A DNA stretch of 54,244 bases. Origin: a virus. Each line of letters starts with the position of its first letter. Position 1 is the stretch's first letter. The notes beneath the pieces were generated by a model, which saw only the letters and a list, made by a program, of their open reading frames with translations, had not been told where the DNA came from and did not search any database. Shown in pieces: positions 6,117 through 50,415 of this stretch. The stretch spans positions 1 through 54,244 of the IMG/VR virus record IMGVR_UViG_3300025000_000132; one strand, given 5' to 3'. A program made the translations under genes and the position numbers.

Positions 6117-6304
6117 CCCCCGAACAGATCAAATTCATTCGCACCACCCTCGGGCGGACCCAGCAGGACATGGCCAAGATCCTCGGGGTCTCCGTCAGTG
6201 TCTGGCAACTCTGGGAGTCGGGTGCTGGCGGACCGAAGCCGGAGAACATGACCAAACTTCTGAAGCTCCACCACCACGTGGTGGGGCGGGAGGGGAGGGG
6301 ATGA
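6113..6304 (+). CDS. XRE-like helix-turn-helix protein
   Basis: 63 residues. Residues about 4-52 form one helix-turn-helix unit: IKFIRTTLGRTQQDMAKILGV as helices 1-2 and VSVWQLWESGAGGPKPENM as recognition helix and turn. It is translationally coupled at both ends (ATGA overlaps with the gene before and with the DNA polymerase after). Likely a small DNA-binding regulator of the replication operon. Confidence 0.65.
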   Translation: MTPEQIKFIRTTLGRTQQDMAKILGVSVSVWQLWESGAGGPKPENMTKLLKLHHHVVGREGRG

Positions 6305-9300
6305 TCAAAGTAGTCCTTGATTGGGAAACCGCCTACGGCAAGCACCCAGCGACGCAGGAGAATATCACCCTATCAAAGATGACAACGGAAGAGTATGTCC
6401 GTCATCCTCTCTTCAAAGTCCACGGCTTGGGGGTCAAAATAGAGCGTGAGCGAGCGTTTTATATCTACAAACGCGACGACCTCCTGCACTTCCTGAAGAC
6501 TCACCCCTGGCAGGAATCGTTCGTCGTCTGCCATCACACTCACTTTGATGGTGCCATACTCTCCTGGCGGGCAGGGATCAAACCGGCGTTCTGGGGCTGC
6601 ACCCTGAGCATGGCCCGCGCCCTCTACCCGCACGAGTCAGTAAGCCTAGCCAACATCGCCCGCCTGCTGCATCTCGGTGAGAAAGGGCATGAGCTGGTCA
6701 ACTTCATCAATCTCTGGGATCTGGCCGACGAGCAGCAACGCATACTCGGCGGCTACTGCTGCAACGACGTGGAGATGACCTCCGACGCCTTTGATGCGAT
6801 GAAGCGAAACTTTCCACCGTCAGAGCTGCGGTTGATCGATCTGACCATCCGCCTATTCACCGAGCCGGTGTTGCAGGTGGAGCGAGGCATTCTGATTGAG
6901 GAGTATAAACGTGAGCGCAGGAGCAAGCGGGCGTTGCTGAAGAAGTGCGCGACAGACAAGTCCGTGCTCGCTTCCAACGACCAGTTTGCAGCCCTGCTGC
7001 TGACCCTTGGCGTGGACCCACCGAAAAAACTCAGCCCTTCGAAAGTCAAGGACGGCAGGGTGGACCCGGACAACGCCGGGGAGCCGCCGCTTGGGATCTT
7101 GCCTTCCTTCAAAACTGCAGGGCTGCCGGTCGAGGACCGGGTGCGGATGAAAGAGGAGAAAAACTCCTACCCTTGGGCCTACGCCTTTGGCAAGAGCGAC
7201 GAGGAGTTTAAGATGCTCCTTGACCACCCGGACGAGCAGGTCCAGGCTGTAGTTGAGGCCCGCATGGGGATCAAATCGACGATCAAGGAAACCCGGAGTA
7301 AGCGGTTCTTCAAGATTGGCAAGCGCGGTGCGTTCCCGGTGTATCATAATTACTATGGAGCGAGGACCGGGCGAGACAGCGGCGGGGATAAACAGAACAC
7401 GACCAACCTGAACCGGGTCGATCCACGTGATCCGACCTCTGGCGCCCTGCGCCGCTCTCTCAATGCTCCTGAGAAGCACGTTCTCGTCGTGCGCGACCTT
7501 GGGCAGATCGAGGCCCGAAAGCTCTCTTACACTGCTGGTCAGGAAGACCTGTTGGATCTGTTCCGCGCCGGCGGCGACCCTTACAACCGGCAAGCGACAA
7601 AGATCTTCGGCTATGAAGTCAACCGCAAGCTTGATGAGTTCTGGCTTGAGGGGCTTGCTGGCAAGGCCTCTGTTCTCGGTTGCTTAGGTGGTGACACAAA
7701 GGTATTGACTAACCGAGGCTGGGTCGATATAGTATCCGTAAGAGCAACGGATACAGTATGGGACGGTGAAAGGTTCGTCACTCATGCTGGTGTCGTACCA
7801 AAAGGAGAACGAGAATGTCTGAAGGCTTTCGGAGTAACCATAACACCGGACCACGAAATCTTGACGGAAAGTTCGTGGCAGGAGTGGCAGTCGGTCCTTA
7901 CAAGCAGTTCCCTTTTCCAGTCGGCTTTGAGCAAGGCGAGCTTACAATCGTCGAATGGAGAGCAAAAAGAACAAACAACAGACCCGACGGGTGGCACCCG
8001 TGGTGCAGATGCTCTTGCGGCTGGGAGGGTTTTATATTACGGGATAATTTTCGCAGAGGGCTTTCAACGCGCTGCAACAACTGTGCAAAAAAAGCTACCG
8101 GAGTTTTTAAGAAAAACTACTTTGGCTACGCTTCCATTGTTGAGGACTCATACCACAGAGAGCGACTACTTAATAGAATATCTGCGTGCGTTCAAAGATG
8201 CCATAACCCGCGCAATAAACAGTATGATAACTACGGTGGCAGAGGAATTAAGGTGTACACACCTTGGCTTGAAGATAGGAAAGAATTTCTTGCTTACTTG
8301 TGTACTTTGCCCGACTGGGATGTTGCTCACTATGAACTCGATAGAGAAGACAATGACAAAGGGTACGAGCCGGGAAATCTTCGATTTGTACCATCACGCA
8401 AGAATGCAAGCAACAAAGGTTCCCTCGCCAAGTTACGAAAGCAGTACGCCCTTCTTGAAGTTGAAAACGCAGACTTACGACATCGCCTTCGCCGGGCCGA
8501 GGAACAGGTTCGCAATCTTAACAGACAAAGGTCCTTTGTTGGTGCATAATTGTGGGTACGGAATGGGTTGGTCGAAATTCCAGGAGAGCCTGCGGGTCGG
8601 GTTTATGGGGATGCCTTCTATAATCTTCGGAGCTAAGGAATCAGAAAAACTTGGTGCTGACATCGATACGTTTTGCCACCAGCGAAGCTACAAGCCCGGT
8701 TACGCCTTCCTGCGAGACGAAGCACTGGCGTTGAAACCGCTCAATGTTAACGAGGAAGCCCACCTCTGGCATTGCGCGGCAGTGAAGCAGATAGTGGATA
8801 AGTACCGGCAGAGCAACAAAGCGATTGTGGACTTCTGGGGTGAGGCACAGCGAGCGCTCGACGCAATAGTGCGGGGCGAGACCATTCCGGTAGGCAAACG
8901 TAACCTCGTCACTACCTGCCCCGAAGGGTTTCTTCTCCCTAACGGTATGAAAATCAGGTACTATAAACTGCAACGCAATGACAGCGGTGAGTTTCGCTAC
9001 CTCTCCAATAGGCGCAAGAACGAATGGTCGTACCTGTACGGCGGAAAGGCCGTTGAAAATATTATTCAGGCGCTGGCCCGTATCGTCCTTACTGACCAGA
9101 TGCTGGAGATCAACCGCTGGTTGAAACTGCAGCGGCAACGCGATGCTGGTAAGATATACTCAGTAGTGACCTCGACCTACGACGAAGTGGTATGCTGCGT
9201 CCCGTTCTACCGCGCCGACGACTGTCTGCAAATGATGAAGGAAGTCATGGCTACGGCGCCGGCATGGTGCCCGGACCTGCCGCTGAAGTCATCCGGTGGA

Positions 9301-9333
9301 TATGCGGTGAGCTACGGGGACTGTGAAAAGTAA
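6301..9333 (+). CDS. Family A DNA polymerase with 3'-5' exonuclease, interrupted by an intein
   Basis: Phage replicative DNA polymerase, 1010 codons, about 720 residues after intein removal. The N-terminal proofreading exonuclease shows VLDWETA (Exo I, residues 5-11), a CHHTHFDGA stretch (Exo II) and YCCNDVEMT (Exo III). The polymerase domain shows VVRDLGQIEARK (motif A; the usual DYSQIE is altered), GKASVLG/CGYGMG (motif B, O-helix, split by the intein) and STYDEVVCC (motif C, YDE in place of HDE). The start at 6301 follows GGAGGGGAGGGG and overlaps the previous stop; the frame stays open back to 5983, but that part is the two preceding genes. Residues 1-460 are the N-extein and 751-1010 the C-extein. 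Confidence 0.9.
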   Translation: MIKVVLDWETAYGKHPATQENITLSKMTTEEYVRHPLFKVHGLGVKIERERAFYIYKRDDLLHFLKTHPWQESFVVCHHTHFDGAILSWRAGIKPAFWGCTLSMARALYPHESVSLANIARLLHLGEKGHELVNFINLWDLADEQQRILGGYCCNDVEMTSDAFDAMKRNFPPSELRLIDLTIRLFTEPVLQVERGILIEEYKRERRSKRALLKKCATDKSVLASNDQFAALLLTLGVDPPKKLSPSKVKDGRVDPDNAGEPPLGILPSFKTAGLPVEDRVRMKEEKNSYPWAYAFGKSDEEFKMLLDHPDEQVQAVVEARMGIKSTIKETRSKRFFKIGKRGAFPVYHNYYGARTGRDSGGDKQNTTNLNRVDPRDPTSGALRRSLNAPEKHVLVVRDLGQIEARKLSYTAGQEDLLDLFRAGGDPYNRQATKIFGYEVNRKLDEFWLEGLAGKASVLGCLGGDTKVLTNRGWVDIVSVRATDTVWDGERFVTHAGVVPKGERECLKAFGVTITPDHEILTESSWQEWQSVLTSSSLFQSALSKASLQSSNGEQKEQTTDPTGGTRGADALAAGRVLYYGIIFAEGFQRAATTVQKKLPEFLRKTTLATLPLLRTHTTESDYLIEYLRAFKDAITRAINSMITTVAEELRCTHLGLKIGKNFLLTCVLCPTGMLLTMNSIEKTMTKGTSREIFDLYHHARMQATKVPSPSYESSTPFLKLKTQTYDIAFAGPRNRFAILTDKGPLLVHNCGYGMGWSKFQESLRVGFMGMPSIIFGAKESEKLGADIDTFCHQRSYKPGYAFLRDEALALKPLNVNEEAHLWHCAAVKQIVDKYRQSNKAIVDFWGEAQRALDAIVRGETIPVGKRNLVTTCPEGFLLPNGMKIRYYKLQRNDSGEFRYLSNRRKNEWSYLYGGKAVENIIQALARIVLTDQMLEINRWLKLQRQRDAGKIYSVVTSTYDEVVCCVPFYRADDCLQMMKEVMATAPAWCPDLPLKSSGGYAVSYGDCEK
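7681..8550 (+). mobile_element. Intein in DNA polymerase motif B
   Basis: 290 codons from Cys (7681) to Asn (8550), followed by Cys+1 of the C-extein. Block A is CLGGDTKVLTNRGW, block B is GVTITPDHEI, and the C-terminal blocks are TYDIAFAGPRNRFAI and GPLLVHN with the expected His-Asn end. The insertion splits the catalytic O-helix between VLG and CGYGMG. The ~200 residues between the N- and C-terminal splicing halves resemble no endonuclease in this frame; instead an HNH gene is encoded there in another frame (7815-8549). Confidence 0.85.
7815..8549 (+). CDS. HNH homing endonuclease overprinted on the intein in another frame
   Basis: 244 residues, read in the -1 (+2) frame relative to the polymerase. 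AAAGGAG at 7801-7807 precedes its ATG by seven bases, so it can be translated on its own. An N-terminal zinc ribbon (CRCSCGW, then CNNC) is followed by a phage HNH core: RLLNRISACVQRCHNP, YDNYGGRGIKVYTPW and ELDREDNDKGYEPGNLRF. A coiled coil (KLRKQYALLEVENADLRHR) ends the protein. The stop TAA lies inside the His-Asn codons that end the intein. The first residues overlap intein block B and the last ~25 overlap the C-terminal splicing blocks. It presumably cuts intein-free polymerase alleles. Confidence 0.85.
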   Translation: MSEGFRSNHNTGPRNLDGKFVAGVAVGPYKQFPFPVGFEQGELTIVEWRAKRTNNRPDGWHPWCRCSCGWEGFILRDNFRRGLSTRCNNCAKKATGVFKKNYFGYASIVEDSYHRERLLNRISACVQRCHNPRNKQYDNYGGRGIKVYTPWLEDRKEFLAYLCTLPDWDVAHYELDREDNDKGYEPGNLRFVPSRKNASNKGSLAKLRKQYALLEVENADLRHRLRRAEEQVRNLNRQRSFVGA

Positions 9334-22260: not shown

Positions 22261-23994
22261 ATGCGCATAATCAAACCAAGCGTTGAATATTTTGGAGCAG
22301 TACCGACAGAATATAATGCTGCACTTAAGTTCATCGAGATGGCAGGTAGGACCTGCTACCGCTCAGAGGACAAGATCACTGAAGATAGTGCCGAGGGGTT
22401 CGTCCGGAAACTGATCAAGGCTGGACATCTGGCTATGGTTGAACACTCGAATTTTGTGGTGCGCCACCGAGACCACGACAACGATGCCATGGTAAAAGCG
22501 ATGATCGCTGCCGGCAAATTCCTCACTGTACGCCGAGACTCGGATTACTTGTATGTAGGTGGCAACCTTACTGCTTGGTACCAGAGAGAAATGGGCATGG
22601 ACGAAACCTTGTTTGAACCGTTCCTTCGGCAGTACGACGTACTATTTGAGGTAGGAGACGAGTTTGACACAGCATTCAATGCTGCCGTCGAGCCTAGTTT
22701 TGGATGGACCATCTGCCCCCACGACGAAATCCCCAAGGAACTCCATCGTTACTCAGCAAAATTCATCTGTGATCGTGGTGTCAGCCATGAACTGGTGCGG
22801 CATAGGCCATGCTCTTTTGCTCAGGAAAGTACGAGGTATGTATCGTCTATAAATACTGAGGTAACCGCGGGTACACAGGAAGACGTAGTGTCACTGTACG
22901 AAGCAGGCATGTCCATGCGGCAAGTGTCCGAAAAATCCCTCGGCCTATTTACAGAATGGGACGTATACAAAATTCTCGTAGCCCATGATGTCGATAGAAG
23001 ACCGCTAGGTAATACTGGTCCAGTGGCGCATGACTTTTTCAATGTAATAGACTCAGTAGAAAAGTCGTATCTTCTTGGAGTGATACAGGCTGATGGAAGT
23101 ATCAGGGCAACAGACTCCCCCCAAATATCCATAACTCAGCATAAAGAGTATGCATGGTATCTGCACAGGATGGTTACCCAGTTTCTTCGCCCCTCTGCCA
23201 TGTGCAGCGCAGACAAAAATTGTAACCAAATTACAGTGACCTCCCCACAACTGAAAGACGATCTTTGCCGGGTAGGTATAATACCAAACAAGTCTTACGA
23301 CCAAACAGAGGAAGATATATCCAAATTGTGGGAAGCGGTACCGCCCGGCTTACTGCCGAGTTTTATCAGAGGATTCTTGGACGGGGATGGAGGAGTAAGA
23401 TTTTTCAAGCAAAAGAACAAAGGAGCTACCGACTCCTGCAATATAAATTGGAGCGGAAACCTTTTTCTTCTGCAAAGAATACAGCAATGGATCTTCGACA
23501 ATTTTTCCTATAATGCGCCGCTGTCTCCGGACGCAGTCAGCAAGAATATGTATCGGTTGCGAGTTACTTCGCCGACAGTAGGGAGGCAGCTTGTGACCCT
23601 TTTGCTTGAAGGGTTTACCTACCCATATGGTCACCCAGAGAAGACAGCACGAATGATGGAAGGCATAGGATTGTACGATTTTCCTGTCAATGTTTTTGGT
23701 GATGAAAAATTCATAATTGCGCAACCGTCTTGGTTATTTGAAGAAGGCCCGAGAGCACTGTGGACTTTTCTGAAAGCTATGGACCAGTCTGAGAGATCGT
23801 ATGAGTACATGCGTAGGAATGGGCTCTCCCCCCAACAAGCCCGAGCCGTCCTGCCTAATGCCCTGAAGACCGAGATCGTAGTCACGGCCGATGCGGCTGA
23901 GTGGGCGCATATCAGGAAACTGCGAACAGCGAAATCAGCCCATCCGGATATGCAGCGAATAATGAATATGATGCCTTGGGAGGAGTTTTTATGA
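22261..23994 (+). CDS. thyX: Flavin-dependent thymidylate synthase with in-frame LAGLIDADG insertion
   Basis: 577 codons; about 299 residues without the insertion, the usual ThyX size. ThyX converts dUMP to dTMP using FAD and methylenetetrahydrofolate. The signature RHRPCSFAQESTRY (180-193) is the canonical RHRxxS...S-x-RY motif. After the insertion the sequence resumes with FGDEKFIIAQPSW, GLSPQQARAVLPNALKTE and EWAHIRKLRTAKSAHPDM, all typical of the C-terminal half. GAGGTCACA precedes ATG 22261. Joining Tyr193 directly to Tyr472 restores a normal ThyX spacing, so the 278 codons between are an insertion. Confidence 0.9.
   Translation: MRIIKPSVEYFGAVPTEYNAALKFIEMAGRTCYRSEDKITEDSAEGFVRKLIKAGHLAMVEHSNFVVRHRDHDNDAMVKAMIAAGKFLTVRRDSDYLYVGGNLTAWYQREMGMDETLFEPFLRQYDVLFEVGDEFDTAFNAAVEPSFGWTICPHDEIPKELHRYSAKFICDRGVSHELVRHRPCSFAQESTRYVSSINTEVTAGTQEDVVSLYEAGMSMRQVSEKSLGLFTEWDVYKILVAHDVDRRPLGNTGPVAHDFFNVIDSVEKSYLLGVIQADGSIRATDSPQISITQHKEYAWYLHRMVTQFLRPSAMCSADKNCNQITVTSPQLKDDLCRVGIIPNKSYDQTEEDISKLWEAVPPGLLPSFIRGFLDGDGGVRFFKQKNKGATDSCNINWSGNLFLLQRIQQWIFDNFSYNAPLSPDAVSKNMYRLRVTSPTVGRQLVTLLLEGFTYPYGHPEKTARMMEGIGLYDFPVNVFGDEKFIIAQPSWLFEEGPRALWTFLKAMDQSERSYEYMRRNGLSPQQARAVLPNALKTEIVVTADAAEWAHIRKLRTAKSAHPDMQRIMNMMPWEEFL
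22840..23673 (+). mobile_element. LAGLIDADG homing-endonuclease insertion in thyX, splicing mode unclear
   Basis: 278 codons, in frame with both sides. It begins with a helix-turn-helix (EDVVSLYEAGMSMRQVS), a linker ending in AHDFFNVIDSVEKS, then two LAGLIDADG motifs, YLLGVIQADG (270-279 of the ORF) and FIRGFLDGDG (368-377), as in free-standing or intron-borne double-motif enzymes. No intein block is visible: no Cys/Ser at the first position with a GDT turn, no TxxH and no terminal His-Asn. The edges read ...TAT at the 5' exon and ...TTG at the insert end, which satisfy the U and G rule of group I introns. A ribozyme core is not recognised. Boundaries are inferred from ThyX spacing. Confidence 0.7.
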
Positions 23995-25728: not shown

Positions 25729-26019
25729 ATGAAACCGTGTCCCTTTTGCGGTAAGGCACTAAAAGAATTATATGCTCCTGCGCACCGCCTTACTGACTTC
25801 GGATATCACTATCATTCGTGTCCGACTATAGGATGTATAGCATCCAGGATACAAGTTACCTACAATAACGAGGATGCATGGAATCGACGAACTCCTGCAT
25901 TAAAAACCGGAGAGCCATGCAGCCACCCTGGGTGCTTAAACCACATGACTCATCCGTGCGAAGGGTGTGGAAGAATAGGAGGAGTTACTCCATCATCGCA
26001 GGCACCTCGTATTGAGTAG
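25729..26019 (+). CDS. Lar-like restriction-alleviation/zinc-ribbon protein
   Basis: 96 residues. The start MKPCPFCGK and later YHSCPTIGC with DAWNRR are the pattern of Lar-type zinc-ribbon proteins, some of which reduce type I restriction. A second cysteine group (CSHPGC, CEGCG) follows in the C-terminal half and is not part of the basic Lar pattern. It starts two bases after the previous stop. It is the last + strand gene, and its final 35 bases overlap the 3' end of the giant late gene on the other strand. Confidence 0.65.
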   Translation: MKPCPFCGKALKELYAPAHRLTDFGYHYHSCPTIGCIASRIQVTYNNEDAWNRRTPALKTGEPCSHPGCLNHMTHPCEGCGRIGGVTPSSQAPRIE

Positions 26020-29000
26020 CTACGTCCCTCTCACGTCGACCGGTCGTGCCGGACTCTCCCCGGAGGATCTTGCGCACGGCCGGTTTAATATCCCGCCCCC
26101 CGATGGCAAACCTCGGCATCCGCAGGTTGAACTTCCTGATATCCTCCATGGCGGCACTGTCGCCGTCACCCTCAAGGATGGCCTCCGCCGCCCGCCGGAT
26201 AAGTTTCCCTCGCCGCTCGGTGATCCGGGTTGATATCCCCCGCAGGCTGCGCTCCGCCCCTTGCGCCTTGGAGATCTCCTCCGGGTTGAAACCGAGGGCA
26301 ATCATCAGCACATCGTCGGGGCCGATCTGGTCGTCAGGGATCAACTTCTTGCCGGCGCCGGTCTTCACCCCGTCCGTCATAGCTCTGATCGCCTTGAAGA
26401 CATCCTTGATCGGTTTGGGGGCAGCGGCTTCAAGGCCCTTCATATAGTTGCCCTTGTTGATCATCTCGTCATATCCCTGCGCTAAGCCGGCACCGACTGA
26501 GAACACCGGGCCAAGCTGGTTGGCAGCCCACCACGCAGCAAGCTCCTTGCCATGCAGCCTCGGCGGCGGCTCGCTCTGCATCCCGTAGACATCCTGCAAG
26601 CCTACCCGCTTGGAGATATCCGCCCCGACCAGCGACGGCAGGCCGTGGGTCAAGAGGTCGGCCATGGTCTTCGGGAAGGTATTCTGTAACCAGTTGGTAT
26701 ACATCAGTCGGTAATCCTCCGGCTCGTCGTCGTCCCCCAGGATTGCCCCGAGGATGGCGAAGACCGTGCCGGCGAACGGCATCCCAAGAGACCCGGCCAG
26801 AGCGCCGGTCATTCCCATGATGCCGACGAACTCCTTGGTGGCCGCAGCCTTGATCTCCTTGCTCTCGCCCCTGATTGCATTGTTGAGCAGCATCGCCAAC
26901 CGGATGCCGGTCATGATCCGGTAATGCTGGAACTGCAGGACCACCCGAGTCAGACCGCCCTGCAGGGCCGCACCCTTGTTCTCCTTGGAGTAGGAATAGA
27001 GGGTGTCGTTGACCACTTCGGCGATGTCGTTCATCGCCAGGAAGAATTCCTTGCCGTCCTGGGAAGCCAGATCGTAGGTGCTGAGCACTGCCGCCTTGCG
27101 GGAGGTAAGTTCGGACAGGCTCATCGGTTTCATTGCCAGGTTGAAGACCTTACTCATCATGCTGTCCGGGTCCTTGCCGCGGGTCAGGTCATAGGCCTCG
27201 TGTGCTGCCGAGATATCGAGGAGGTTGCGAGCCATGGCCTCCCGCAGGACCAACAGACGACGTTGGTAGGGGGTGAGTTCGTCAGCTATCCGCTTCGCCA
27301 GCTGCTCCTCGGTGAACAACGGCTCGCCCAGTTCCTTGCCCTTGGCAGCCGGCGTGTTGCGGTTGTCGATGGTGACCACGGCGTGGAGTTCGTCAAAGAG
27401 CAGCTCGACAATTGGATCGTTGAACATCGGCGCCCGCCGGTAGTCTTTCTTGAACGACTCCTTGGTCCACAGTGCCAAGGCCTTGGCTGCCTTGACCGGC
27501 CCGTACTTGACCGCCAGCTTAGGCAGGGTCAAAGCGCCGAGCTGAGTCATCTGCACCAGGGCGATCGACGGCGAGGTCATGTACCAGCCGGTGCCGATCT
27601 TGCCTAAGAAAGATGCAGCCACGCCGACCTTCACCGAGCGCAGGGCCTGGACCCGGGCCCGCAGGTCGTTGAGCAGGTGGTTCTCCATGTCGGTGTTGGC
27701 AGCGGCATCACCGTCAAGCTTGGCCTTGATATCGTCGCCCATGCTCTTGAGGTCGCCCTCGATCTTCTTACCCTGCTCAGTCCAGGCGATGTTGGAAGCA
27801 TGACGCTGCATGTAATCGAGGTAACTGCGCAGCATATCGAGGCTGTAGCCCTTGACGTTTTTTCTGCGCACCGAGTTTTTCAGGGCGGAGGTCTCCGGCT
27901 GCCAGCGCAGCCAGATCTGGGTCATGTCGTTGATGGTGTTCTGAGCTGCCTCGAGGGCATCAGCAACGGCGACGTCGTCGTACTGGTTTACCCCTACCAT
28001 GTACTTTTCCCGGACAGTCTTGCTCAACTGCTCAAGCATCATCGCAGGTATTGCGACCGCGCCGGCCGGCTGCTTGTCCTTGTACGACTCCTTGATGCCG
28101 GCCGGATCAACACCGGCAGCGATGCGCTCAGCCTTGGCCTCGTTGCGCTCGGCGATGGTGGTGAAATGCTCGGCCCACTTGAAGCCGTCCTTGTCGACGT
28201 ACTTGAGGACGAAGTCGCCGACCCGGGCCAGTGGCCAGTAGGCACCATGCAGGTCGGTGAAGGTGGCGTCGAACTTGAGCATCATTTCTTTACGCTCGTC
28301 GGAGTTGGGCTCGGTCACCTTTTCAATGTAGCGCAGCAGGTTGTTCTTCTCCCGGGTCCTGATGCCGGCGATGTGCTCGACAGTGTCCTGGTAAGCCTGC
28401 TTCATCTCGTTGGTCTTGAGGGCGTCGTAGGCCTTCTTCGCCTCGCTGTAGGCCTCGATATACGTCAGCTTGGTGGCCTTTTGCATCTTCGCTGCCACCC
28501 ACTTCTTCTGAGCGTTCTTCAGCTTTTCGGACTTGGTCTTACCTTCTACCCAGTCCTGACTGTAGACGTCCAGCCAGGGGGTTATGCGGTTAAATGAGGC
28601 GGTAGCTGCCGCGGTGTTGAAGACATCCAGCCCGACGGTCTTCTGGGCCACCTCCATGGCCTTGTCGTAGACCACCTTCGAGGTGTCGACGATCTCAGTC
28701 TTGGCAGAGACCACGGCGTCCAAGTGCTTGGCGAAATCCTTGATCTGCGGGATGGTCTTGCCGAATGTCTGCACCAGGGTGTGCAGCGGGGTCACCGCCA
28801 GCCACTGCGGAGCATACTGGACATAGAGATCGTGGAGCTTGGACTTCGGGTTCTTGATCGCAGTGAGGGTCATGTCGAGCTTTTTCTGCCCGGACTTGAA
28901 GGCTTCACTGATCTGCTCGTCGGCGATGACACCGAGGGGGGTCTGGACCTGCTCGGCAGTCGTCCGTCCCATCAACTTATCCAGTGAAGAGGTGACCACG

Positions 29001-32000
29001 TTCGCGTCGGCGTTGAGCAGGTCCTCGCCCAGCCGCAGGACTTCGCTGAGAGCGGTGTCGGAGGCGGCGGTGAGGCCGAAAAACGTCCTGACGGACTGCA
29101 CGAACCTGGACCACAGGGTCTCGGTCTTGCCCAGCTTGACGGTCTCCAGGTAGTCCTGCATCTCCTTGTTGGACAGTGTCCAGGCCAGCACCTCGGAGGG
29201 GTTGTTGAGGGCGTTGACGTTGCGCTGCAGGATCCTCTGCTCGAACTCGGTGAGGGTCTCGCCGCTCGCCGCCCGGGTGTTGAAGTGGTCGATGATCAGG
29301 TTGGTGACATCGACCATCTCCGCGGTAGCCTTGGCGAGCGTCGTGCCGGTGCTGACCTTGCGGTTACCGACATGGATGGCCGCCTGGGTGGCGGCGTGGA
29401 TCAGCTCGTGGAGGACAGTCTCGTAGGACATCCCCACCTTGCCGGTGACATCGGCACCGTTCAGTCTGACCGTGGTCTTGATGCCGTCCGAGAAGTCGGT
29501 GGTCGACACACCCCGGGAGTTGGCTGAGGAGGCCGGGATGCTGTCGCCGACATGGGTGACGTTCAGGTTGAACTCGACGCCTGCACCCTTGAGCCTGAGC
29601 AGGGCCACCCGGACCTTGGCGGCGATCAGCTTGTGTCCGTTGTTCGGCGTGTTGTTGATCAGCCACTCAGCGGCCTGGATGGGGGTCTTGCCCTCGATAC
29701 CCTTCTGGACTTTCTCAGCTTCTGCTTTGGACGGGTCGCCCAAATTACTTGGACCCGCCTTGGCGTCGGCGACCTTTACTTGCTCATCCTCAATCACCGC
29801 CGTCAGCCCCTGGTACTCAGCCTCGTCCATCTCAGCTATCTCGGCCATGGCGGCATCGGCCTTGGCCCTCGGGTTCTGCGCCCGATAGGCGCGGATGGCG
29901 GCGTCGGACGGGACGCGTTTGAACGGCGTGTCGCCACTAGCGATGTCCTCAGCAATGACTTTCGCCTGTGCTGCGTAGGCGGAGGGGAGGGGCTTCTCTG
30001 CTTTCTTGGAGGTGACTTTCTTTTCGGGCTTAGCCTTGACTAGTGTAGGTTTCTTCGCCGGAGATTTAGCAGTATCCCCGGTAAGTTTGATCGGGTGAGT
30101 CTTTCCGAACCGGTCAGTCAGCGCAATCTCGTTGAAGGTTATTTCCGTACCCTCGAGCGAGGCATTACCAACGTATTTCTTCCCCTCGCCCTTCTTCACG
30201 TAGGCAATGGTCGCATGTGGCTGATAGTCCTTGTATGTCTCCCCGGGCAGGTCGACCAGGTCCCCTACCTTTTTGTTTGCGCCCCGCAGGGAGTCGCTGA
30301 TTATCTCGGCCTTCACCACGTCGTACTTGTCAGTTTCAAAGATCGACACCTTGCCGATCTTGGCGGTTACTGGGCCGACCTTCGACAGTTCAGCCAGTTC
30401 TGCAGGGTTGTCGGTACCAAGCCCGTACCTTACAGTGATATGCGGCTCTGTCTCGCGGCCATATGAATCATCGTTAGGATCGGTGTAAAGCTCACTATCA
30501 GGGATTGATTTTCCGAGGTCGGTTATCTTCTTAGCGGCAGGCCCCTTGATGTTCACCTGAGTGTTGCTGTAATCGTGTACCTGTCCTTCTTCCTTTACAG
30601 GTTTGGCAGTAGCGACAACCGCATTATTCTTCTTCCCCTCCCACTGCGCCTTCATCTTCTCGGCCGCAGACCGGACGCTCTCCTCGGAGGCGTCCTTGGC
30701 AGAGAAAGTCACGCCCTTGAGCGGGCCAGCCTGGTAAGTGAACTGCGGCAGGCCGAGGTTGTCGCCGTTGTACTTGAGGTCCTTGTCGACCTTGGCAGCT
30801 ACTCGGACCAGCTGTAGTTCTCCCCTCGACTCTCCGACGCTCGCACTGCTGTCAGTGCTGACTGCGTTGCTTGCCGGCAAATTTCCTGCTGACTTCTGGG
30901 GGCCTCCGGCGGGTTCTGCTTCGAGTACCTGAGAAAGCGTTCCTGCAGGTTCGGCTGCAGCTGGGGTTTGCGACGGAGCCACAGCCACGCCTTGACCAAC
31001 TCCTCCCTCCGGAGGTACAGGAATTGCAACATTGTTCATCTCCTCCCGTATTTTGAAGATCTCCTCCTGCACCGCGGTCTTCTCAAGGCCTACCGGCAGT
31101 GCCTCCCACTGATCAACAAGGGTGTCGTGCTGGAAGGTCAGGGTGTCGAGGTCAGTCGGCTCGGTCTGGTTGGTGACTACTGGCTGGGTACTAGCCGGGG
31201 CAGCGCTCGGTTCAGGAGTCAGTGGTTCAGAAACTCCGTCCACCACTTGCTCGGGTCCAGGTTGTACAGCCTGAACAGGTTCATTTGCAGGCGTTGCCTG
31301 CGGCTCAGTTTCATCTCTTTTTACCTTAGTTGCATTTTTCTCAAGCCAATTGAACTGGGACCCAGGACTCTTCGGACGCTTTGCCAACTCAGCATTGACC
31401 TGCTCTCTGGTCATGCCTGCTGGCGGTGCATACTCATAAACCTTGAACTCGTCTTTCTTGTCATTGTAAACCTGAAACCTCACCACCTCCGGACGCACCG
31501 GGTCGTCCTCCAGCTGCTCGAACTTCTTGGTCCCGGACTTGGCCAGCAGCTTCTGGTATTCCTTACGCTCGTCTGGCGTGAACTGCTCCCCGCCCAGTGC
31601 CTTGGCCTCAAGCTCGGCGAGGCGAGCAGGAGACTTCTTCACTGCATCGACTACGCTGCCGCCCTGCGCCAGGGTCTGGGCAAGGGTGTCGACGTCCGCC
31701 TCGCCGCCCTCGGTAGTGACCTTGCCGTTATGCACGACGCCCTCGACCCCTAGGTTCTTCAGCAGTGTCTTCTGGGCAGAATCCTTGACCGGGTCCACAG
31801 CAGCCTCAGCAGCACGGCGGATAGGCATCTCGTTGGCGATATCCTCAACCGCTCCGGAGAACCACTCCTCTGCCCCGGGCACGTTATTATCCACGGCCTC
31901 GGTGTGCAGCATATGGACCACAGCCAGCCGCGCTTCTGCCGGCGCCGCCTTCGGGTCGGCCAGGATCTGATCTACCGCTTCCGCTCTGCGAGAGTTACGA

Positions 32001-32893
32001 TAATGGCCGGCGAGTCCGAACGGCGCCAGCAGTGCAGTCATGCCGAGCGTCGGAGCAATAACGTCCTTGGTCTGCTGCCATGGATCAACGTCGACCCCAG
32101 CATTCTTCTCAACTACAGCCTGCCCGTAACCCTGACCCATCTCGGTCGCAACCTCGCCGACTGCGGTCTTGAACAGCTGCTTGGCAAAGGGCTTCCACAG
32201 CGCGGAGTCCGTCGCGTTTGCAATGACCTTGTCAATACCTTCCTTTGCTACTTTGCTCAGGGCCTTGCCCCCGATGCCGAGCAGCTTGCCGCCGAGATAC
32301 GTACCGATGGTCTCGCCGCCGGCCTCGATCGCTCCCGACTTCCAGCCAGCGATGCGGGCAGCCTCGGTGTCTCCACCGGCTTCCTTGACTCGCTCCATGG
32401 TGTCCTGAGCCTGGGCCATGCCCATAGGCACTGCACCGGCAAGCGCAGATATTCCCAGGCCAACAGCGGCAGGAACGGCAGCAGTGGGGGCGGCAGCCAG
32501 GCCGGCACCGACAACGAGCGGGATAGCGACGGAGGGAGCGAGCATCTCGGCGCCTTCCGCAAGGGCGTTGGTAACGGCGTTGTGACCTTCAGGATTCAGC
32601 TGGATCTCGGGTTTGGCGAGTCGCGCCTCGGCTGCGTTGACGATGCCCTGGCCGAACTTATACACTCTGGACTCCGGCTCGGTTGCCCACTTGGCAGCCT
32701 GCCCGACCATCTTTGGCAACTCTCCGACCACACCACGCTTCAGGCCAGTGTAGACTTCACCGACGGCGGAGCGATTCGCTGCAGTGCGGATGCCTACCGG
32801 CGCAGGGATATTGGCAGGAGAGTTCCCGAGGATGTCGTCTAAGGTGCCCTGCTGTGGCCCGTCGGCGGCGAGAATATCGTCAAGGGTAGGCAT
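25985..32893 (-). CDS. Giant polyvalent virion protein with 2H phosphoesterase and metallopeptidase domains
   Basis: 2302 residues, probably packaged and injected with the DNA. The N-terminus repeats a TLDDIL motif (residues 3-8 and 17-22), then an Ala/Gly-rich hydrophobic stretch (about 118-160) that could cross a membrane. A 2H phosphoesterase domain spans about 770-940, with EPHITVRYG (His818-x-Thr820) and QPHATIAYV (His893-x-Thr895). A zinc metallopeptidase site, LHELIHAAT (HExxH, 1162-1166), follows. The C-terminal ~1000 residues are mostly helical and resemble phage internal core proteins (VVLQFQHYRIMTGIRLAML). Such multi-domain polyvalent proteins are thought to counter host defences or open the way for DNA entry. 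GGAGGG precedes the ATG. Confidence 0.8.
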   Translation of the reverse strand: MPTLDDILAADGPQQGTLDDILGNSPANIPAPVGIRTAANRSAVGEVYTGLKRGVVGELPKMVGQAAKWATEPESRVYKFGQGIVNAAEARLAKPEIQLNPEGHNAVTNALAEGAEMLAPSVAIPLVVGAGLAAAPTAAVPAAVGLGISALAGAVPMGMAQAQDTMERVKEAGGDTEAARIAGWKSGAIEAGGETIGTYLGGKLLGIGGKALSKVAKEGIDKVIANATDSALWKPFAKQLFKTAVGEVATEMGQGYGQAVVEKNAGVDVDPWQQTKDVIAPTLGMTALLAPFGLAGHYRNSRRAEAVDQILADPKAAPAEARLAVVHMLHTEAVDNNVPGAEEWFSGAVEDIANEMPIRRAAEAAVDPVKDSAQKTLLKNLGVEGVVHNGKVTTEGGEADVDTLAQTLAQGGSVVDAVKKSPARLAELEAKALGGEQFTPDERKEYQKLLAKSGTKKFEQLEDDPVRPEVVRFQVYNDKKDEFKVYEYAPPAGMTREQVNAELAKRPKSPGSQFNWLEKNATKVKRDETEPQATPANEPVQAVQPGPEQVVDGVSEPLTPEPSAAPASTQPVVTNQTEPTDLDTLTFQHDTLVDQWEALPVGLEKTAVQEEIFKIREEMNNVAIPVPPEGGVGQGVAVAPSQTPAAAEPAGTLSQVLEAEPAGGPQKSAGNLPASNAVSTDSSASVGESRGELQLVRVAAKVDKDLKYNGDNLGLPQFTYQAGPLKGVTFSAKDASEESVRSAAEKMKAQWEGKKNNAVVATAKPVKEEGQVHDYSNTQVNIKGPAAKKITDLGKSIPDSELYTDPNDDSYGRETEPHITVRYGLGTDNPAELAELSKVGPVTAKIGKVSIFETDKYDVVKAEIISDSLRGANKKVGDLVDLPGETYKDYQPHATIAYVKKGEGKKYVGNASLEGTEITFNEIALTDRFGKTHPIKLTGDTAKSPAKKPTLVKAKPEKKVTSKKAEKPLPSAYAAQAKVIAEDIASGDTPFKRVPSDAAIRAYRAQNPRAKADAAMAEIAEMDEAEYQGLTAVIEDEQVKVADAKAGPSNLGDPSKAEAEKVQKGIEGKTPIQAAEWLINNTPNNGHKLIAAKVRVALLRLKGAGVEFNLNVTHVGDSIPASSANSRGVSTTDFSDGIKTTVRLNGADVTGKVGMSYETVLHELIHAATQAAIHVGNRKVSTGTTLAKATAEMVDVTNLIIDHFNTRAASGETLTEFEQRILQRNVNALNNPSEVLAWTLSNKEMQDYLETVKLGKTETLWSRFVQSVRTFFGLTAASDTALSEVLRLGEDLLNADANVVTSSLDKLMGRTTAEQVQTPLGVIADEQISEAFKSGQKKLDMTLTAIKNPKSKLHDLYVQYAPQWLAVTPLHTLVQTFGKTIPQIKDFAKHLDAVVSAKTEIVDTSKVVYDKAMEVAQKTVGLDVFNTAAATASFNRITPWLDVYSQDWVEGKTKSEKLKNAQKKWVAAKMQKATKLTYIEAYSEAKKAYDALKTNEMKQAYQDTVEHIAGIRTREKNNLLRYIEKVTEPNSDERKEMMLKFDATFTDLHGAYWPLARVGDFVLKYVDKDGFKWAEHFTTIAERNEAKAERIAAGVDPAGIKESYKDKQPAGAVAIPAMMLEQLSKTVREKYMVGVNQYDDVAVADALEAAQNTINDMTQIWLRWQPETSALKNSVRRKNVKGYSLDMLRSYLDYMQRHASNIAWTEQGKKIEGDLKSMGDDIKAKLDGDAAANTDMENHLLNDLRARVQALRSVKVGVAASFLGKIGTGWYMTSPSIALVQMTQLGALTLPKLAVKYGPVKAAKALALWTKESFKKDYRRAPMFNDPIVELLFDELHAVVTIDNRNTPAAKGKELGEPLFTEEQLAKRIADELTPYQRRLLVLREAMARNLLDISAAHEAYDLTRGKDPDSMMSKVFNLAMKPMSLSELTSRKAAVLSTYDLASQDGKEFFLAMNDIAEVVNDTLYSYSKENKGAALQGGLTRVVLQFQHYRIMTGIRLAMLLNNAIRGESKEIKAAATKEFVGIMGMTGALAGSLGMPFAGTVFAILGAILGDDDEPEDYRLMYTNWLQNTFPKTMADLLTHGLPSLVGADISKRVGLQDVYGMQSEPPPRLHGKELAAWWAANQLGPVFSVGAGLAQGYDEMINKGNYMKGLEAAAPKPIKDVFKAIRAMTDGVKTGAGKKLIPDDQIGPDDVLMIALGFNPEEISKAQGAERSLRGISTRITERRGKLIRRAAEAILEGDGDSAAMEDIRKFNLRMPRFAIGGRDIKPAVRKILRGESGTTGRRERDVATQYEVPAMME

Positions 32894-33893: not shown

Positions 33894-33951
33894 GATGTAA
33901 CCTCCTTATACTTTCTTAACCTACCGCATCAGCAGAGAAATGTCTACCGTG

Positions 33952-35898
33952 TTACATATTATAATTGTAATTATGCAGCGTTTTTGTACCGGTCTCGTCG
34001 CTGGTGGAATTGACCCTGCTGTCGCTGTCGCTTTCACTGTAGGAGTTCGAGAGGCTTTCGTTGAACCCGAGCTGGGCCGAGGCGGAGACACTCGACAGGG
34101 CAGAAGCGACCTTCTGGGCCTGAATCAGGGCGGCGGCTTTCAAGGCTTCGACCTGCACTTCCTTCATCGCCGTCATCGCCCGCAGGTTGGCTTCAAGTTC
34201 CTTGACCGCGATCTCGGCCTGAGCCATGACCCCGGAGATAGTTGCCGAGTAGCGATTTACCAGTGCCTTAATGTACTCGCTCTCTCGCCCGACCTCTGCC
34301 TCATAGGCGCCGATGTCCGCGGCGTAGACCTTGGTGCCGGCCTCCTCGAGCCCAAGCTGGTAGTCTGTATCGGCCTTATACTTCTCGATGGCCGCGGTGA
34401 GCACGGCGATCCGGTCCTTGTTGCCCTCGGTCACGGCCTGGATCTCGGCAATGTTGATCTCGGAGGCGACCTTGGCCCCCTGCATCTGCGCGGAGAAGGC
34501 CTCGACCTGCTTGGCGAACAGGTCCACCTTGGCTGTTTCGCCTGCGATCTGAGCCTGGTAGAGGTTAAACCCGGCGGTGACTCCGTTGATCTGGGCAACG
34601 GCGGCGTCGATGCGAGCCCGGAACGCCTCGATCCGTGCCTTGTCGATTTCCACCTGCAGCTTCGCCCCTTCCATCTGAGCGCGGTAGAGGTCAATCACCA
34701 CCTGCAGAGCCTGGACCCGCTTCGAGTAAATCTCCACCTGCTGCACCTGCAGGTCGCCGAGGATCTTCGCCCCTTCCATCTGGGCGCGGTAAATCTCCAC
34801 CCGGGCGAGCTCGGCGCGGATCCGGCTCTCGAAGACCTGGGCCAGGGTCTTGTAGCCCTCAAGCCGAGCAGTGTAGGCCGAAACCCGCAACTGGAAGATG
34901 TCGATGACCATCTGCACCTGGGTCTTGGCAATCTCGAAGGCTCGCTGGTTCACCTGGTTGGTGAAGTCCATGATCTGCTTCTCGAAGGTCAGGCCGCTGG
35001 TGATGGCGAACTGAGTCGCCTGCTGGGTGACATCGGCCTGCTTGTACATGGTATCCCGGGCGAGGTCGAGCCGGGTTCGCCGGTCGTCGTACAGAGCCTC
35101 CTGCAGGGCGGCGGAGAGCACCCCGTCGGGCATCTCCATGTTCCACTGCTCCCAGGCGTTGAGGATCTTGGCGGTACCTTTGTTGATCTCAATGTCAAGC
35201 TGGGTCAGTGCCCGCTCCCAGATCGCCGTCCACACCTCGTCGGTATAGACCGCGTTGCCGAGCGTGATGTCGTTGTAGAGCTTGGTGCGCAGGGCGTCGG
35301 CAAGGTCGGACTGGTAGGTCGCTTCACTGTAGACGAACATCGGCTCGGGCGGGGTCAGGTCGGCGGTCGGCATCACGCCGTCAAAGCTCAGGCCCTCAAG
35401 CACTGGCGCGGCTGGCAGGGCGATCGTCTCAAGCACCGGCACCGGCGGCAGGTCAAGGCTCGGGGCAGGCGGGATGGCCGGGTCGGCGACCGCCGGCGCA
35501 TCGGAGGGCACTGTCGGGATGGCAGTGCTTGGCATGGCCGGGATGTTCACCGTCGGTTCGACAGCCGTGAGCACCGGCAGAGTGATCTCTGCGATCGTCG
35601 CCTCGGTGAGCCCGAGCAAGTTGCGCAGGGCAGCGATATCGGAGAACGTCACCGCCGTCATCTTGCTGACGTAGGCCGCAACCGCGTCAGGGCTGGGGGG
35701 CTCGCCGATCGGCGGCTCAGGCGGCAGGTCACTGATATCGACACTGCCGGAAGGCGCAGAGAACGAAGCATTGCCGAGTGCCCCCAGGGCGCTGGTTGAA
35801 GCTGAATCGTACTGGTTGACAAGGTCGGTGCTCAACCCGAACCTGGCAGTGACAAGGTCCTCGGCTACTGATGCGTCTGGGAATCCAAAACTGCCCAT
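33952..35898 (-). CDS. Long coiled-coil structural protein
   Basis: 648 residues. The first ~190 are Pro/Ala-rich with short P-x-x-P strings; residues ~200-590 are almost continuous helix with repeated units around YRAQMEGAK (two close copies) and related LYQAQIAGETAK and FSAQMQGAK. The end is Ser/Asp-rich. The form suggests a fibrous or tube-forming component of the tail or internal core. The repeat unit is about 40-45 residues. AAAGGAG precedes the start. Its exact virion role is not known. Confidence 0.6.
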   Translation of the reverse strand: MGSFGFPDASVAEDLVTARFGLSTDLVNQYDSASTSALGALGNASFSAPSGSVDISDLPPEPPIGEPPSPDAVAAYVSKMTAVTFSDIAALRNLLGLTEATIAEITLPVLTAVEPTVNIPAMPSTAIPTVPSDAPAVADPAIPPAPSLDLPPVPVLETIALPAAPVLEGLSFDGVMPTADLTPPEPMFVYSEATYQSDLADALRTKLYNDITLGNAVYTDEVWTAIWERALTQLDIEINKGTAKILNAWEQWNMEMPDGVLSAALQEALYDDRRTRLDLARDTMYKQADVTQQATQFAITSGLTFEKQIMDFTNQVNQRAFEIAKTQVQMVIDIFQLRVSAYTARLEGYKTLAQVFESRIRAELARVEIYRAQMEGAKILGDLQVQQVEIYSKRVQALQVVIDLYRAQMEGAKLQVEIDKARIEAFRARIDAAVAQINGVTAGFNLYQAQIAGETAKVDLFAKQVEAFSAQMQGAKVASEINIAEIQAVTEGNKDRIAVLTAAIEKYKADTDYQLGLEEAGTKVYAADIGAYEAEVGRESEYIKALVNRYSATISGVMAQAEIAVKELEANLRAMTAMKEVQVEALKAAALIQAQKVASALSSVSASAQLGFNESLSNSYSESDSDSRVNSTSDETGTKTLHNYNYNM

Positions 35899-48045: not shown

Positions 48046-50415
48046 TTAATAGCCTTCTCGCTGAGCAGGTCGGTACGGCGTGGGTTGGTTGAGGGGGTTG
48101 AAGTCAGTAACCCTAATATGCTCAGCCGGGTCATACTTGCCTGACAATAAATATAAGTCACCATATTGCCCTGCTTCGGCGATATGTGACCATTCGTTCT
48201 TCTCAGGACTGTCGGAATACTTACCGGTCATCTTCTGTTTCTGGTATCGATATTTGCTTCGCAGGGCCTCGATATACCACTTACAGGACGGATCGATCAT
48301 CATCAGCGGGTCGCCATCCGGGTAGTTGCTCAGCATCTGCTCGGTCGCCTGGATCCTGGTAGTCGGATCGTTGGTCGACGCCGCCTTGACGATGGCTCCT
48401 TCCTCGTCGAAGTCTGCCTGCAGCACCTTGAACGCCGAGGACTCATCAGAGTCGGCCCGCCGCTTGCCGGCTGGATCGCCGATGAAGATCAACGGGTTGG
48501 TTGGGAAGAAGTTCTTGATGAGCGGACGCAGCTTGTTCTTGCTGAACCGCTTCATCCCCATGTCAAAAGCTACCGCCTCCCGCAGGACCCGCACTCGCCC
48601 GTCGAGATCCATCTGCTTAAAGGTCGCCGCCGGCGTTAACCCGCAGTCGAAAGAGATGATCACCGGTAGGAAAGGATCTATCTGCAGGGGAACCTGCGAT
48701 ACATGGCGTTCCGCCTTGAATGTAGTAGCGTAGACCGCCTTGCCTGAAAGCGATGGAGAATACATGCCATGGATGTATGTGTCGACAAAGGTCTTGGTCT
48801 CGCCCTCAGCCAGATCGGTGTAATAATCCGGATGAAGATGGTCCCTATTCTCCGCCTCTGGGGAGATACCCGAAGGCTGCTTGAAGGCATCGACCTTGAT
48901 GACGCTGTTCGGGTTCCCTTCTTCCTGGGGAAGATGCTCCATCATTTTATAAGCAGCACTGTCGATCTCCGGTGGGTTGGAGTCCATTATCAGGCCGTAC
49001 CACGTTCCAGGGACCTCAACCGGATTCGGGTATCGTCTGAGCCTGCCCTTGATCGAAGAGTAGAGCGCAACAGGCACCTCCCTGAATTCATTGATAAATG
49101 CTCCCGATAACTCCAAGCTGAGAACTCTTCCTATATCATCCTCGGTATCAAGCGGAAGGAACATTATCTCCGCATCTACTTCTCCGAAGTTCAGCCGGAA
49201 CAGCATCTTGGTATCGTGCCAGGTACCAAAGTCCTTCATCCAGTGCATCCACGTTTTGAGGGTGGTGTCGCGCAGCTGCTTATTAGTATTTCGGATGATC
49301 GCCCACCGCGAAGACCTCTTGCCTTTGTTCCAGATTGGCACCTCCAGACAACGACGCAGGATCTCGACGCAGCAGGCCGCGCTCTTGCCAGAGTTCCCAG
49401 TTACAAAAATCGAAGTGTTATGCCTCGCGAGGAAAAACCCCGACGAGACAGTAAAACAATACTTCTTTCCGTCCGTTGTAGGAACTCGCTCGGTTACTGT
49501 GTTATCGCATCGAAACATTGAAACAGCCCGCTGAGACCCTGGCGGAGCTATATGCACGACATACGTCGATCGCCAATTCTGCTGCGAGTATGTTTGTACA
49601 CTGATCGTTGCCCGCCCCCCTACGGCATGGACAGCGTACTGTATAAAATCAGCATCACACCTATTGGCAGAGTGATACCTGGTATCTGGCCCTTCAAACA
49701 AGCCATCCCAGTGAGTCATCTCGTCGACGACAATCTGTAGCTGCCGCTGAGACAGCCCCCACCAAAAGGCTCCTTCAAAAGTCTTCTCTTTGTACTCAGA
49801 CTCGAATACAAAAATCTCCTCGGTCGGACGTGTCGGGTAGCACCTACGAATGTAAGGTACTCCAGCTGCTGTTAAAAGTTCAACGATCCGGGTTTTCTTT
49901 CGATCTTTTCTAACGCAGATTGTTGTCTGCCGCCCAACTTTGGCGTGGTACGCATCAGCATTAATGGCTACTGCGAGTCGAAGAAACGCATCAGACACTG
50001 GGTAGTCTTTGGTTGTAGGGATGAAGTTTATAGGTATCCGGTTTTTAGAGAGCTTCTTTTCCAGCCTCGCTGCTGTTTTTACCTTGAAGTTCCCCGCCCA
50101 GTCATATACAGGAACTCTATGCTCAGCACTCAGCTGCATAGACAGGGTCCTGTTGTGGAACCATATAAGTTCGTCACACGGCAGGACTACATACGCTTCT
50201 GGTTCGACGAACCGAAGGGCTCCGGACTCATCCCACTGCGCTACTTTGTCTCCTGCCTCATACGCATCAATGCGCTTCCATCCTGTCGGAGTGAGGAACT
50301 CGGTGTCTGCGGAGGTACACCCGATCGGCCCCATGATTGCTCGATGGAAGGCGTTCGACCGCATGAACTTCGAGACGGTCGGCGACGCAGTGAATTTGAA
50401 ATCAATATCAGCCAC
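48046..50415 (-). CDS. Terminase large subunit with an intein in Walker A
   Basis: 789 codons, about 480 residues after splicing. The packaging ATPase has Walker A GPIG/SGKSAACC, split by the intein; then RWAIIRNTNKQLRDTTL, GAFINEFREVP (Walker B region) and YGLIMDSNPPE (motif III-like). The nuclease part shows ISFDCGLTPA and FIGDPAGKRR, the Asp residues of the RNase-H-like fold. It starts with GTG at 50415, which lies inside the 3' end of the previous gene behind GAGGTGG. It cuts and packages the genome through the portal encoded next. Confidence 0.88.
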   Translation of the reverse strand: MADIDFKFTASPTVSKFMRSNAFHRAIMGPIGCTSADTEFLTPTGWKRIDAYEAGDKVAQWDESGALRFVEPEAYVVLPCDELIWFHNRTLSMQLSAEHRVPVYDWAGNFKVKTAARLEKKLSKNRIPINFIPTTKDYPVSDAFLRLAVAINADAYHAKVGRQTTICVRKDRKKTRIVELLTAAGVPYIRRCYPTRPTEEIFVFESEYKEKTFEGAFWWGLSQRQLQIVVDEMTHWDGLFEGPDTRYHSANRCDADFIQYAVHAVGGRATISVQTYSQQNWRSTYVVHIAPPGSQRAVSMFRCDNTVTERVPTTDGKKYCFTVSSGFFLARHNTSIFVTGNSGKSAACCVEILRRCLEVPIWNKGKRSSRWAIIRNTNKQLRDTTLKTWMHWMKDFGTWHDTKMLFRLNFGEVDAEIMFLPLDTEDDIGRVLSLELSGAFINEFREVPVALYSSIKGRLRRYPNPVEVPGTWYGLIMDSNPPEIDSAAYKMMEHLPQEEGNPNSVIKVDAFKQPSGISPEAENRDHLHPDYYTDLAEGETKTFVDTYIHGMYSPSLSGKAVYATTFKAERHVSQVPLQIDPFLPVIISFDCGLTPAATFKQMDLDGRVRVLREAVAFDMGMKRFSKNKLRPLIKNFFPTNPLIFIGDPAGKRRADSDESSAFKVLQADFDEEGAIVKAASTNDPTTRIQATEQMLSNYPDGDPLMMIDPSCKWYIEALRSKYRYQKQKMTGKYSDSPEKNEWSHIAEAGQYGDLYLLSGKYDPAEHIRVTDFNPLNQPTPYRPAQREGY
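49393..50319 (-). mobile_element. Intein in the terminase Walker A motif
   Basis: 309 codons, ORF residues 33-341. It begins CTSADTEFLTPTGWKRI (block A) and has SAEHRVPV with His99 (block B). It ends GKKYCFTVSSGFFLARHN and FVTGN, followed by Ser+1; the penultimate residue is Gly, not His. The middle resembles a worn LAGLIDADG endonuclease: RLAVAINADAY and IVVDEMTHWDGLFEG in place of the two motifs. The acidic residue remains in both, so activity cannot be excluded. It is inserted between GPIG and SGKS, the ATP-binding loop. Confidence 0.85.

What the first reader, a model, noticed from the sequence alone, without database searches (positions are those of the whole stretch)
7681..8550. Intein whose homing endonuclease is overprinted in another reading frame
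The polymerase intein has complete splicing blocks in the polymerase frame, but no endonuclease there. An HNH homing-endonuclease gene of 244 codons (7815-8549) is encoded in the -1 frame, with its own AAAGGAG and ATG. Its stop codon falls in the last His-Asn codons of the intein. The polymerase frame stays open through all 735 overlapping bases, which by chance should contain about eleven stops. Splicing blocks B, F and G are thus dual-coded. This would separate endonuclease expression from host-protein splicing and let the two evolve under conflicting constraint.
Basis: partly seen in the sequence, partly recalled or inferred. Interest (0 to 1): 0.88.

Follow-up and report, generated by a model that had tools for sequence, protein, structure and literature searches.

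The report
Intein hiding an endonuclease gene out-of-frame
A self-splicing insert in a virus's DNA polymerase gene carries, in a shifted reading of the same DNA, a separate gene for a DNA-cutting enzyme, and the same double-coded arrangement is kept in well over a hundred other phages, with signs of its own built-in promoter, so one stretch of DNA seems to run two programs of one mobile element.

Summary
Confirmed. A family-A polymerase ORF (6301-9333) carries a 290-aa intein (7681-8550), and a 244-codon HNH ORF lies inside it in the -1 frame (7815-8549). It is neither chance nor assembly error: 80 distinct inteins (53 under 75% nucleotide identity) share the phase; all have an open polymerase frame and 78 an open HNH frame. 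Shuffling HNH synonymous codons puts about 5 stops in the window's polymerase frame (P(open) about 0.0005); free-standing HNH homologues have 4-16.

New: a sigma-70-like promoter recurs at one fixed intein position in 34 of 53 lineages (4.6 expected), with a start codon downstream. Nearly identical inteins sit in very different polymerases, so the element moves. A second set of polymerase inteins carries HNH in the +1 frame. Precedents: APSE-1 and SO-1 annotation; the intein-less ShiLan insertion. Splicing, cleavage and promoter use are inferred.

The parts
6301..7680 (+). N-extein of family-A DNA polymerase, ending ...GLAGKASVLG
   Evidence: Pfam DNA_pol_A and PHROG 17 matches
7681..8550 (+). 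Intein, 290 aa, polymerase frame, class-1-like (C1, TPDH, HN, +1 Cys)
   Evidence: Invariant C1, T55, H58, D267, H289, N290 in relatives; mini-intein fold matches, prob 1.00
7705..7733 (+). Embedded sigma-70-like promoter: -35 TTGACT 7705-7710, -10 TATAGT 7728-7733
   Evidence: Found; same position in 34/53 relatives versus 4.6 expected from extein codon usage
7801..7807 (+). Shine-Dalgarno-like AAAGGAG, 7 nt before the HNH ATG
   Evidence: Sequence
7815..8549 (+). HNH endonuclease ORF, 244 codons, -1 frame, with zinc-finger-like cysteines (C66, C68, C87, C90) and HNH motif (about residues 176-200)
   Evidence: PHROG 374 E=1e-28; invariant residues in relatives; pLDDT 87.7
7831..7875 (+). Intein block B (GVTITPDHEILTESS), overlapping the HNH N-terminus; polymerase-constrained
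7951..8442 (+). Intein linker (residues 91-254): low confidence in the polymerase frame, HNH core in the other frame
   Evidence: pLDDT about 40; substitutions follow the HNH frame
8446..8550 (+). Intein C-terminal blocks F/G, overlapping the HNH C-terminal helix; HNH stop TAA 8547-8549 formed by CAT-AAT
   Evidence: pLDDT about 97
8551..9333 (+). C-extein of DNA polymerase, starting CGYGMG (motif B / O-helix region)

Best explanation
A mobile element of two overlapping genes sits in the catalytic motif of a phage family-A DNA polymerase. Read in the polymerase frame it is a mini-intein (residues 1-90 and 256-290) joined by a long, probably unstructured loop, which should splice itself out of the precursor and leave an intact polymerase (inferred). 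Read in the -1 frame, the loop is an HNH endonuclease gene, made as a separate protein from its own start and RBS and probably its own promoter embedded in intein block A. The endonuclease would cut intein-free polymerase alleles and the intein would be copied in by repair (homing, inferred). The most likely origin is insertion of a free-standing HNH gene into the loop of a mini-intein out of frame, followed by selection to remove stops from the polymerase frame. Shown computationally: both frames open and selected in their own regions, conserved promoter-like sequence and start, mobility between divergent polymerases. Inferred: splicing, cleavage, promoter use, order of events.
For: Anatomy. 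Conservation: 80 distinct inteins, same phase. Stop avoidance. Substitution classes in 20 non-overlapping pairs: middle, HNH-silent/pol-changing 0.344 per site versus HNH-changing/pol-silent 0.103; block B reversed (0.062 versus 0.212), C-terminal blocks reversed (0.065 versus 0.193). Folds: polymerase frame pLDDT about 97 at the ends and about 40 in residues 91-254, matching mini-inteins at prob 1.00; HNH frame pLDDT 87.7. HNH identity: PHROG 374 E=1e-28. Mini-intein of 121 aa without HNH at the same site (L111). Free-standing HNH homologues with 4-16 stops in the equivalent frame. Promoter: 34/53 at one position versus 4.6 expected, maximum 11 in 1000; Leu9=TTG 33/50 versus 15% in exteins, p=8e-16; Ile17=ATA 25/49 versus 15%, while third bases elsewhere are saturated (identity 0.29). 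ATG or GTG at intein codon 31 in 50/53. Mobility: L034/L039 inteins 98.2% identical with exteins 65% and 48%; Jerseyvirus/Dhillonvirus inteins 83% with exteins about 60-69%; near-identical Jerseyvirus polymerases with and without it.
Against: No expression, splicing or cleavage data. No Pfam HNH model matches and the HNH model has no significant PDB fold match, so the HNH call rests on PHROG profiles and annotated homologues. The promoter is absent or weak in about a third of lineages, and the window's own start (codon 45) differs from most relatives' (codon 26, 31 or 33). Most relatives were retrieved by polymerase-frame similarity.
Confidence: 0.87

Rival explanations
1. The HNH frame is a dead relic: the intein is active but the out-of-frame endonuclease is no longer made, and its openness is inherited.
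For: Two of 80 carry a single HNH nonsense codon; homing endonucleases commonly decay (established knowledge).
Against: In the middle region HNH-changing substitutions run at under a third of the HNH-silent rate; HNH catalytic and cysteine positions are invariant across lineages below 75% nucleotide identity; recent transfers are seen.
Confidence: 0.05
2. HNH is made not by internal initiation but by -1 ribosomal frameshifting from the polymerase, giving an intein N-part/HNH fusion.
For: HNH is in the -1 frame in this family, and in 16 of 53 relatives the HNH frame has no stop before intein codon 55.
Against: Slippery heptamers in the polymerase frame in only 3 of 53; in 37 of 53 an HNH-frame stop lies upstream; conserved promoter-like site and start codon; the related second set uses +1, which cannot share such a mechanism.
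Confidence: 0.05
3. The insert is a group I intron with an HNH ORF, as annotated for Sodalis phage SO-1.
For: SO-1 annotation; HNH enzymes are common in phage introns (established knowledge).
Against: No Rfam match at E<=1; complete intein motifs and Hint fold in the polymerase frame; polymerase frame stop-free in all 80.
Confidence: 0.01
4. Assembly or sequencing indel: the endonuclease is really in the polymerase frame.
For: None found.
Against: Same phase in 80 distinct sequences; both-frame searches hit the same polymerase genes in over a hundred cultured phages.
Confidence: 0.005

Closest known systems
ShiLan domain / Pacc40 insertion (out-of-frame HNH in phage DNA methylases; Genes 2025, PMC11855218)
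   Same: HNH endonuclease out of frame inside an insertion that leaves the host gene open; a mobile phage element; HNH stop TAA overlapping the last Asn codon.
   Different: The paper finds no splicing domain and no RBS there and suggests the insert stays in the protein. Here a complete Hint splicing domain, an RBS and a promoter-like sequence are present, in a polymerase.
Inteins with in-frame homing endonuclease (LAGLIDADG type such as PI-SceI; HNH type)
   Same: Splicing blocks, insertion into a catalytic motif, mobility.
   Different: There endonuclease and splicing domain are one polypeptide; here they are two proteins from overlapping frames.
APSE-1 P45/P46 and Sodalis phage SO-1 gp38/gp39 annotations
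   Same: Records already list an HNH-type ORF nested in the DNA polymerase gene; SO-1 is the same -1 type, APSE a +1 type at another site.
   Different: Annotation only; SO-1 is called a type I intron. I found no paper in the held library explaining them as an intein with out-of-frame endonuclease.
Intein-containing polymerase of Jerseyvirus / Dhillonvirus phages (e.g. vB_SenS-Ent1, EP23)
   Same: Same insertion region, same -1 HNH frame.
   Different: Records mark the intein, but in those viewed the HNH frame is not annotated.

Membership tests
Intein (Hint domain, class 1) | Catalytic Cys1, block B TxxH, C-terminal His-Asn, +1 Cys/Ser/Thr | tested here: met
   Invariant in alignments A2 and A4; +1 Cys in most, Ser in two viewed
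Intein (Hint domain, class 1) | Hint fold | tested here: met
   pLDDT about 97 at both ends; matches DnaB, DnaX and gp41-1 mini-inteins with prob 1.00
Intein (Hint domain, class 1) | Self-splicing activity | not testable with these tools
   Needs a reporter experiment
HNH endonuclease | Profile similarity to HNH families | tested here: met
   PHROG 374 E=1e-28 and PHROG 3377 E=1e-20
HNH endonuclease | Curated Pfam HNH model or solved HNH fold | tested here: inconclusive
   No Pfam HNH match; PacI only at E=2.5
Homing element | Horizontal movement faster than host gene; empty alleles exist | tested here: met
   L034/L039 98.2% versus 65/48%; intein-free polymerases over 94% identical in protein
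Homing element | Endonuclease cuts the empty site | not testable with these tools
   Needs a cleavage assay
ShiLan-type insertion | Out-of-frame HNH with no self-splicing domain | tested here: not met
   Complete splicing domain present
Group I intron | Intron RNA core | tested here: not met
   No Rfam match

The most novel reading that the evidence does not exclude
A recurrent class of phage selfish element in which the splicing domain and the endonuclease are uncoupled into two overlapping genes, with the intein's own block A doubling as the endonuclease's promoter. Out-of-frame HNH genes have been captured by polymerase inteins at least twice, in both alternative frames and at two insertion sites.
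Probability: 0.6. Interest if true: 0.88.

Novelty: new variant of a known kind. Interest (0 to 1): 0.82.

Why it matters
Textbook inteins keep the homing endonuclease fused inside the splicing protein, so making one makes the other. Here one mobile element encodes them separately from overlapping frames, which lets endonuclease timing and dose be set independently of host-protein synthesis. Because the arrangement occurs in easily grown Salmonella and E. coli phages, with natural intein-free alleles (and HNH-broken alleles in metagenomic relatives), the evolution of inteins, endonuclease capture and gene overprinting becomes directly testable. It also means many phage genomes carry an unannotated endonuclease.

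Tried and rejected
HNH query alone in viral contigs found nothing with single-sequence patterns; the polymerase-frame alignment worked. Group I intron: no Rfam match. Frameshifting: slippery sites essentially absent. Relics: rejected by substitution classes. A seeming HNH stop in L001 was only the alignment running past the true stop near the intein end. Common descent as the cause of the promoter-like codons was tested: third bases at conserved four-fold codons agree at only 0.29 between lineages, and a null using codons of the intein N-terminus itself still gives 12.1 (sd 2.4) versus 30 observed. Ile17=ATA alone is weaker against other N-terminal Ile codons (11/34) than against exteins; the -35 codons carry most of the signal. 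The HNH tree forces at least two changes for the +1 label, but does not settle whether the Streptococcus-type +1 group and the -1 group arose separately. No common promoter position was seen in the +1 set. The Gosselin et al. 2025 preprint on non-canonical actinobacteriophage inteins (cited in PMC11855218) is not held and could pre-empt part of this.

Full report
Observation. The window is a virus record. A family-A DNA polymerase ORF (6301-9333) is interrupted in its O-helix region (...GKASVLG | CGYGMG...; the motif name is from general knowledge) by 290 codons, 7681-8550, that begin with Cys and end with His-Asn before a Cys. An ORF of 244 codons, 7815-8549, lies inside it in the -1 frame, with AAAGGAG 7 nt upstream; its TAA is formed by the CAT-AAT of the terminal His-Asn. 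The third frame has 27 stops.

Is it more than chance? Over 53 relatives (each under 75% nucleotide identity to the others) the choice of Leu/Val codons depends on the next base exactly as stop avoidance demands: TA-ending 190 times before C/T and 0 before A/G; TG-ending 196 before C/T, 170 before G, 0 before A. Eight free-standing HNH homologues have 4 to 16 stops in the equivalent frame.

It is a family. A polymerase-frame alignment finds 318 relatives in IMG/VR (80 kept) and 7 in bacterial or archaeal assemblies. All 80 distinct full-length inteins have an open polymerase frame; 78 have an HNH-frame run of at least 234 codons, the other two a single nonsense codon. Searches with either frame hit the same polymerase genes in cultured phages, mostly Salmonella Jerseyvirus and E. 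coli/Shigella Dhillonvirus types, plus EBPR siphovirus 2, Pseudomonas phage MR14 and Vibrio phage 97.13.

Who constrains what. In 20 non-overlapping close pairs, substitutions in the middle of the intein fall mostly at HNH third positions (about 1007 of 1693). The HNH-silent/pol-changing rate is 0.344 per site against 0.103 for the converse. In block B and the C-terminal blocks the pattern reverses (0.062 versus 0.212; 0.065 versus 0.193). Structure prediction agrees: in the polymerase frame residues 1-90 and 256-290 are at pLDDT about 97 and match mini-inteins, while residues 91-254 are at about 40; the HNH frame is at 87.7 overall. So the two genes share the DNA but largely divide the constraint. 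The overlap is costly mainly through stop avoidance.

Which frame came first. HNH has homologues elsewhere (PHROG families; free-standing phage genes). For the polymerase-frame linker I found no homologues other than out-of-frame readings of HNH genes, and a 121-aa mini-intein without any HNH occupies the same site in L111. The simplest history is capture of an HNH gene in a mini-intein loop, with the linker frame overprinted (inference).

How the endonuclease may be expressed. A sigma-70-like promoter, TTGACT-N17-TATAGT, lies at 7705-7733 in the window. In relatives the same hexamers sit at the same intein position: 34 of 53 score at least 9/12, against 4.6 expected (maximum 11 in 1000 randomisations) from extein codon usage, and 30 against 12.1 under a stricter null. 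Leu9 uses TTG in 33/50 (15% in exteins, p=8e-16) and Ile17 uses ATA in 25/49 (15%, p=1e-8), although silent sites are otherwise saturated between these lineages. Downstream, an ATG or GTG occurs at intein codon 31 in 50 of 53, a product of the conserved Glu-Trp, and in 15 an ATG at codon 33, often with GGAGG-like sequence before it. The window itself lacks that start and uses codon 45 with a strong Shine-Dalgarno. Frameshifting finds little support. Promoter use is inferred, not shown.

It moves. L034 and L039 carry inteins 98.2% identical inside polymerases whose flanks are 65% and 48% identical; Jerseyvirus S10 and Shigella phage EP23 share 83% over the intein and about 60-69% over the flanks. 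Jerseyvirus polymerases over 94% identical in protein exist with and without the intein. The cut itself is inferred.

A second set. Streptococcus phage Javan113 (same site), Caulobacter phage RW, APSE phages and Shewanella phage SFCi1 (another site in the same polymerase for RW and APSE, before CEN..QA) carry related inteins with an HNH in the +1 frame. In an HNH tree, well supported branches force at least two changes for the +1 label, so capture probably happened more than once.

What is known. Out-of-frame HNH insertions in phage methylases were published in 2025, explicitly without a splicing domain (PMC11855218). APSE-1 and SO-1 records already list nested ORFs. In the open-access library searched (10 searches) I found no account of an intein with an out-of-frame endonuclease, but one cited preprint on non-canonical intein architecture could not be read. 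I therefore rate it a new variant of a known kind, with high interest.

Noticed in passing
window 48046-50415 (-): The terminase large subunit carries an intein in its Walker A motif (GPIG|CTSADTEFL...FVTGN|SGKS), read by eye from the translation.
   Followed up: partly
window 22261-23994 (+): ThyX (Thy1) is interrupted in frame by a LAGLIDADG-like stretch (LLGVIQADGS, FIRGFLDGDGG; PHROG endonuclease 204-449) with no obvious Hint blocks and no Rfam intron match.
   Followed up: partly
L104-L110, L112, L113, L115, L116: Polymerase inteins with the HNH endonuclease in the +1 frame, at the same site (Streptococcus type) and at a second site (Caulobacter, APSE).
   Followed up: partly
L111:4001-4363: A 121-aa mini-intein with no HNH at the same polymerase site.
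   Followed up: yes
L096: A scaffold of Taishania pollutisoli carries a polymerase intein 95% identical to that of a Salmonella Jerseyvirus; probably a phage contig in that assembly.
   Followed up: no
window 25985-32893 (-): A 2302-aa ORF resembling DarB-like antirestriction proteins.
   Followed up: no
window 33940-35799 (+) and 33952-35898 (-): Two antisense ORFs of over 600 codons on the same DNA; the minus one matches PHROG 10969, the plus one may be a composition effect.
   Followed up: no
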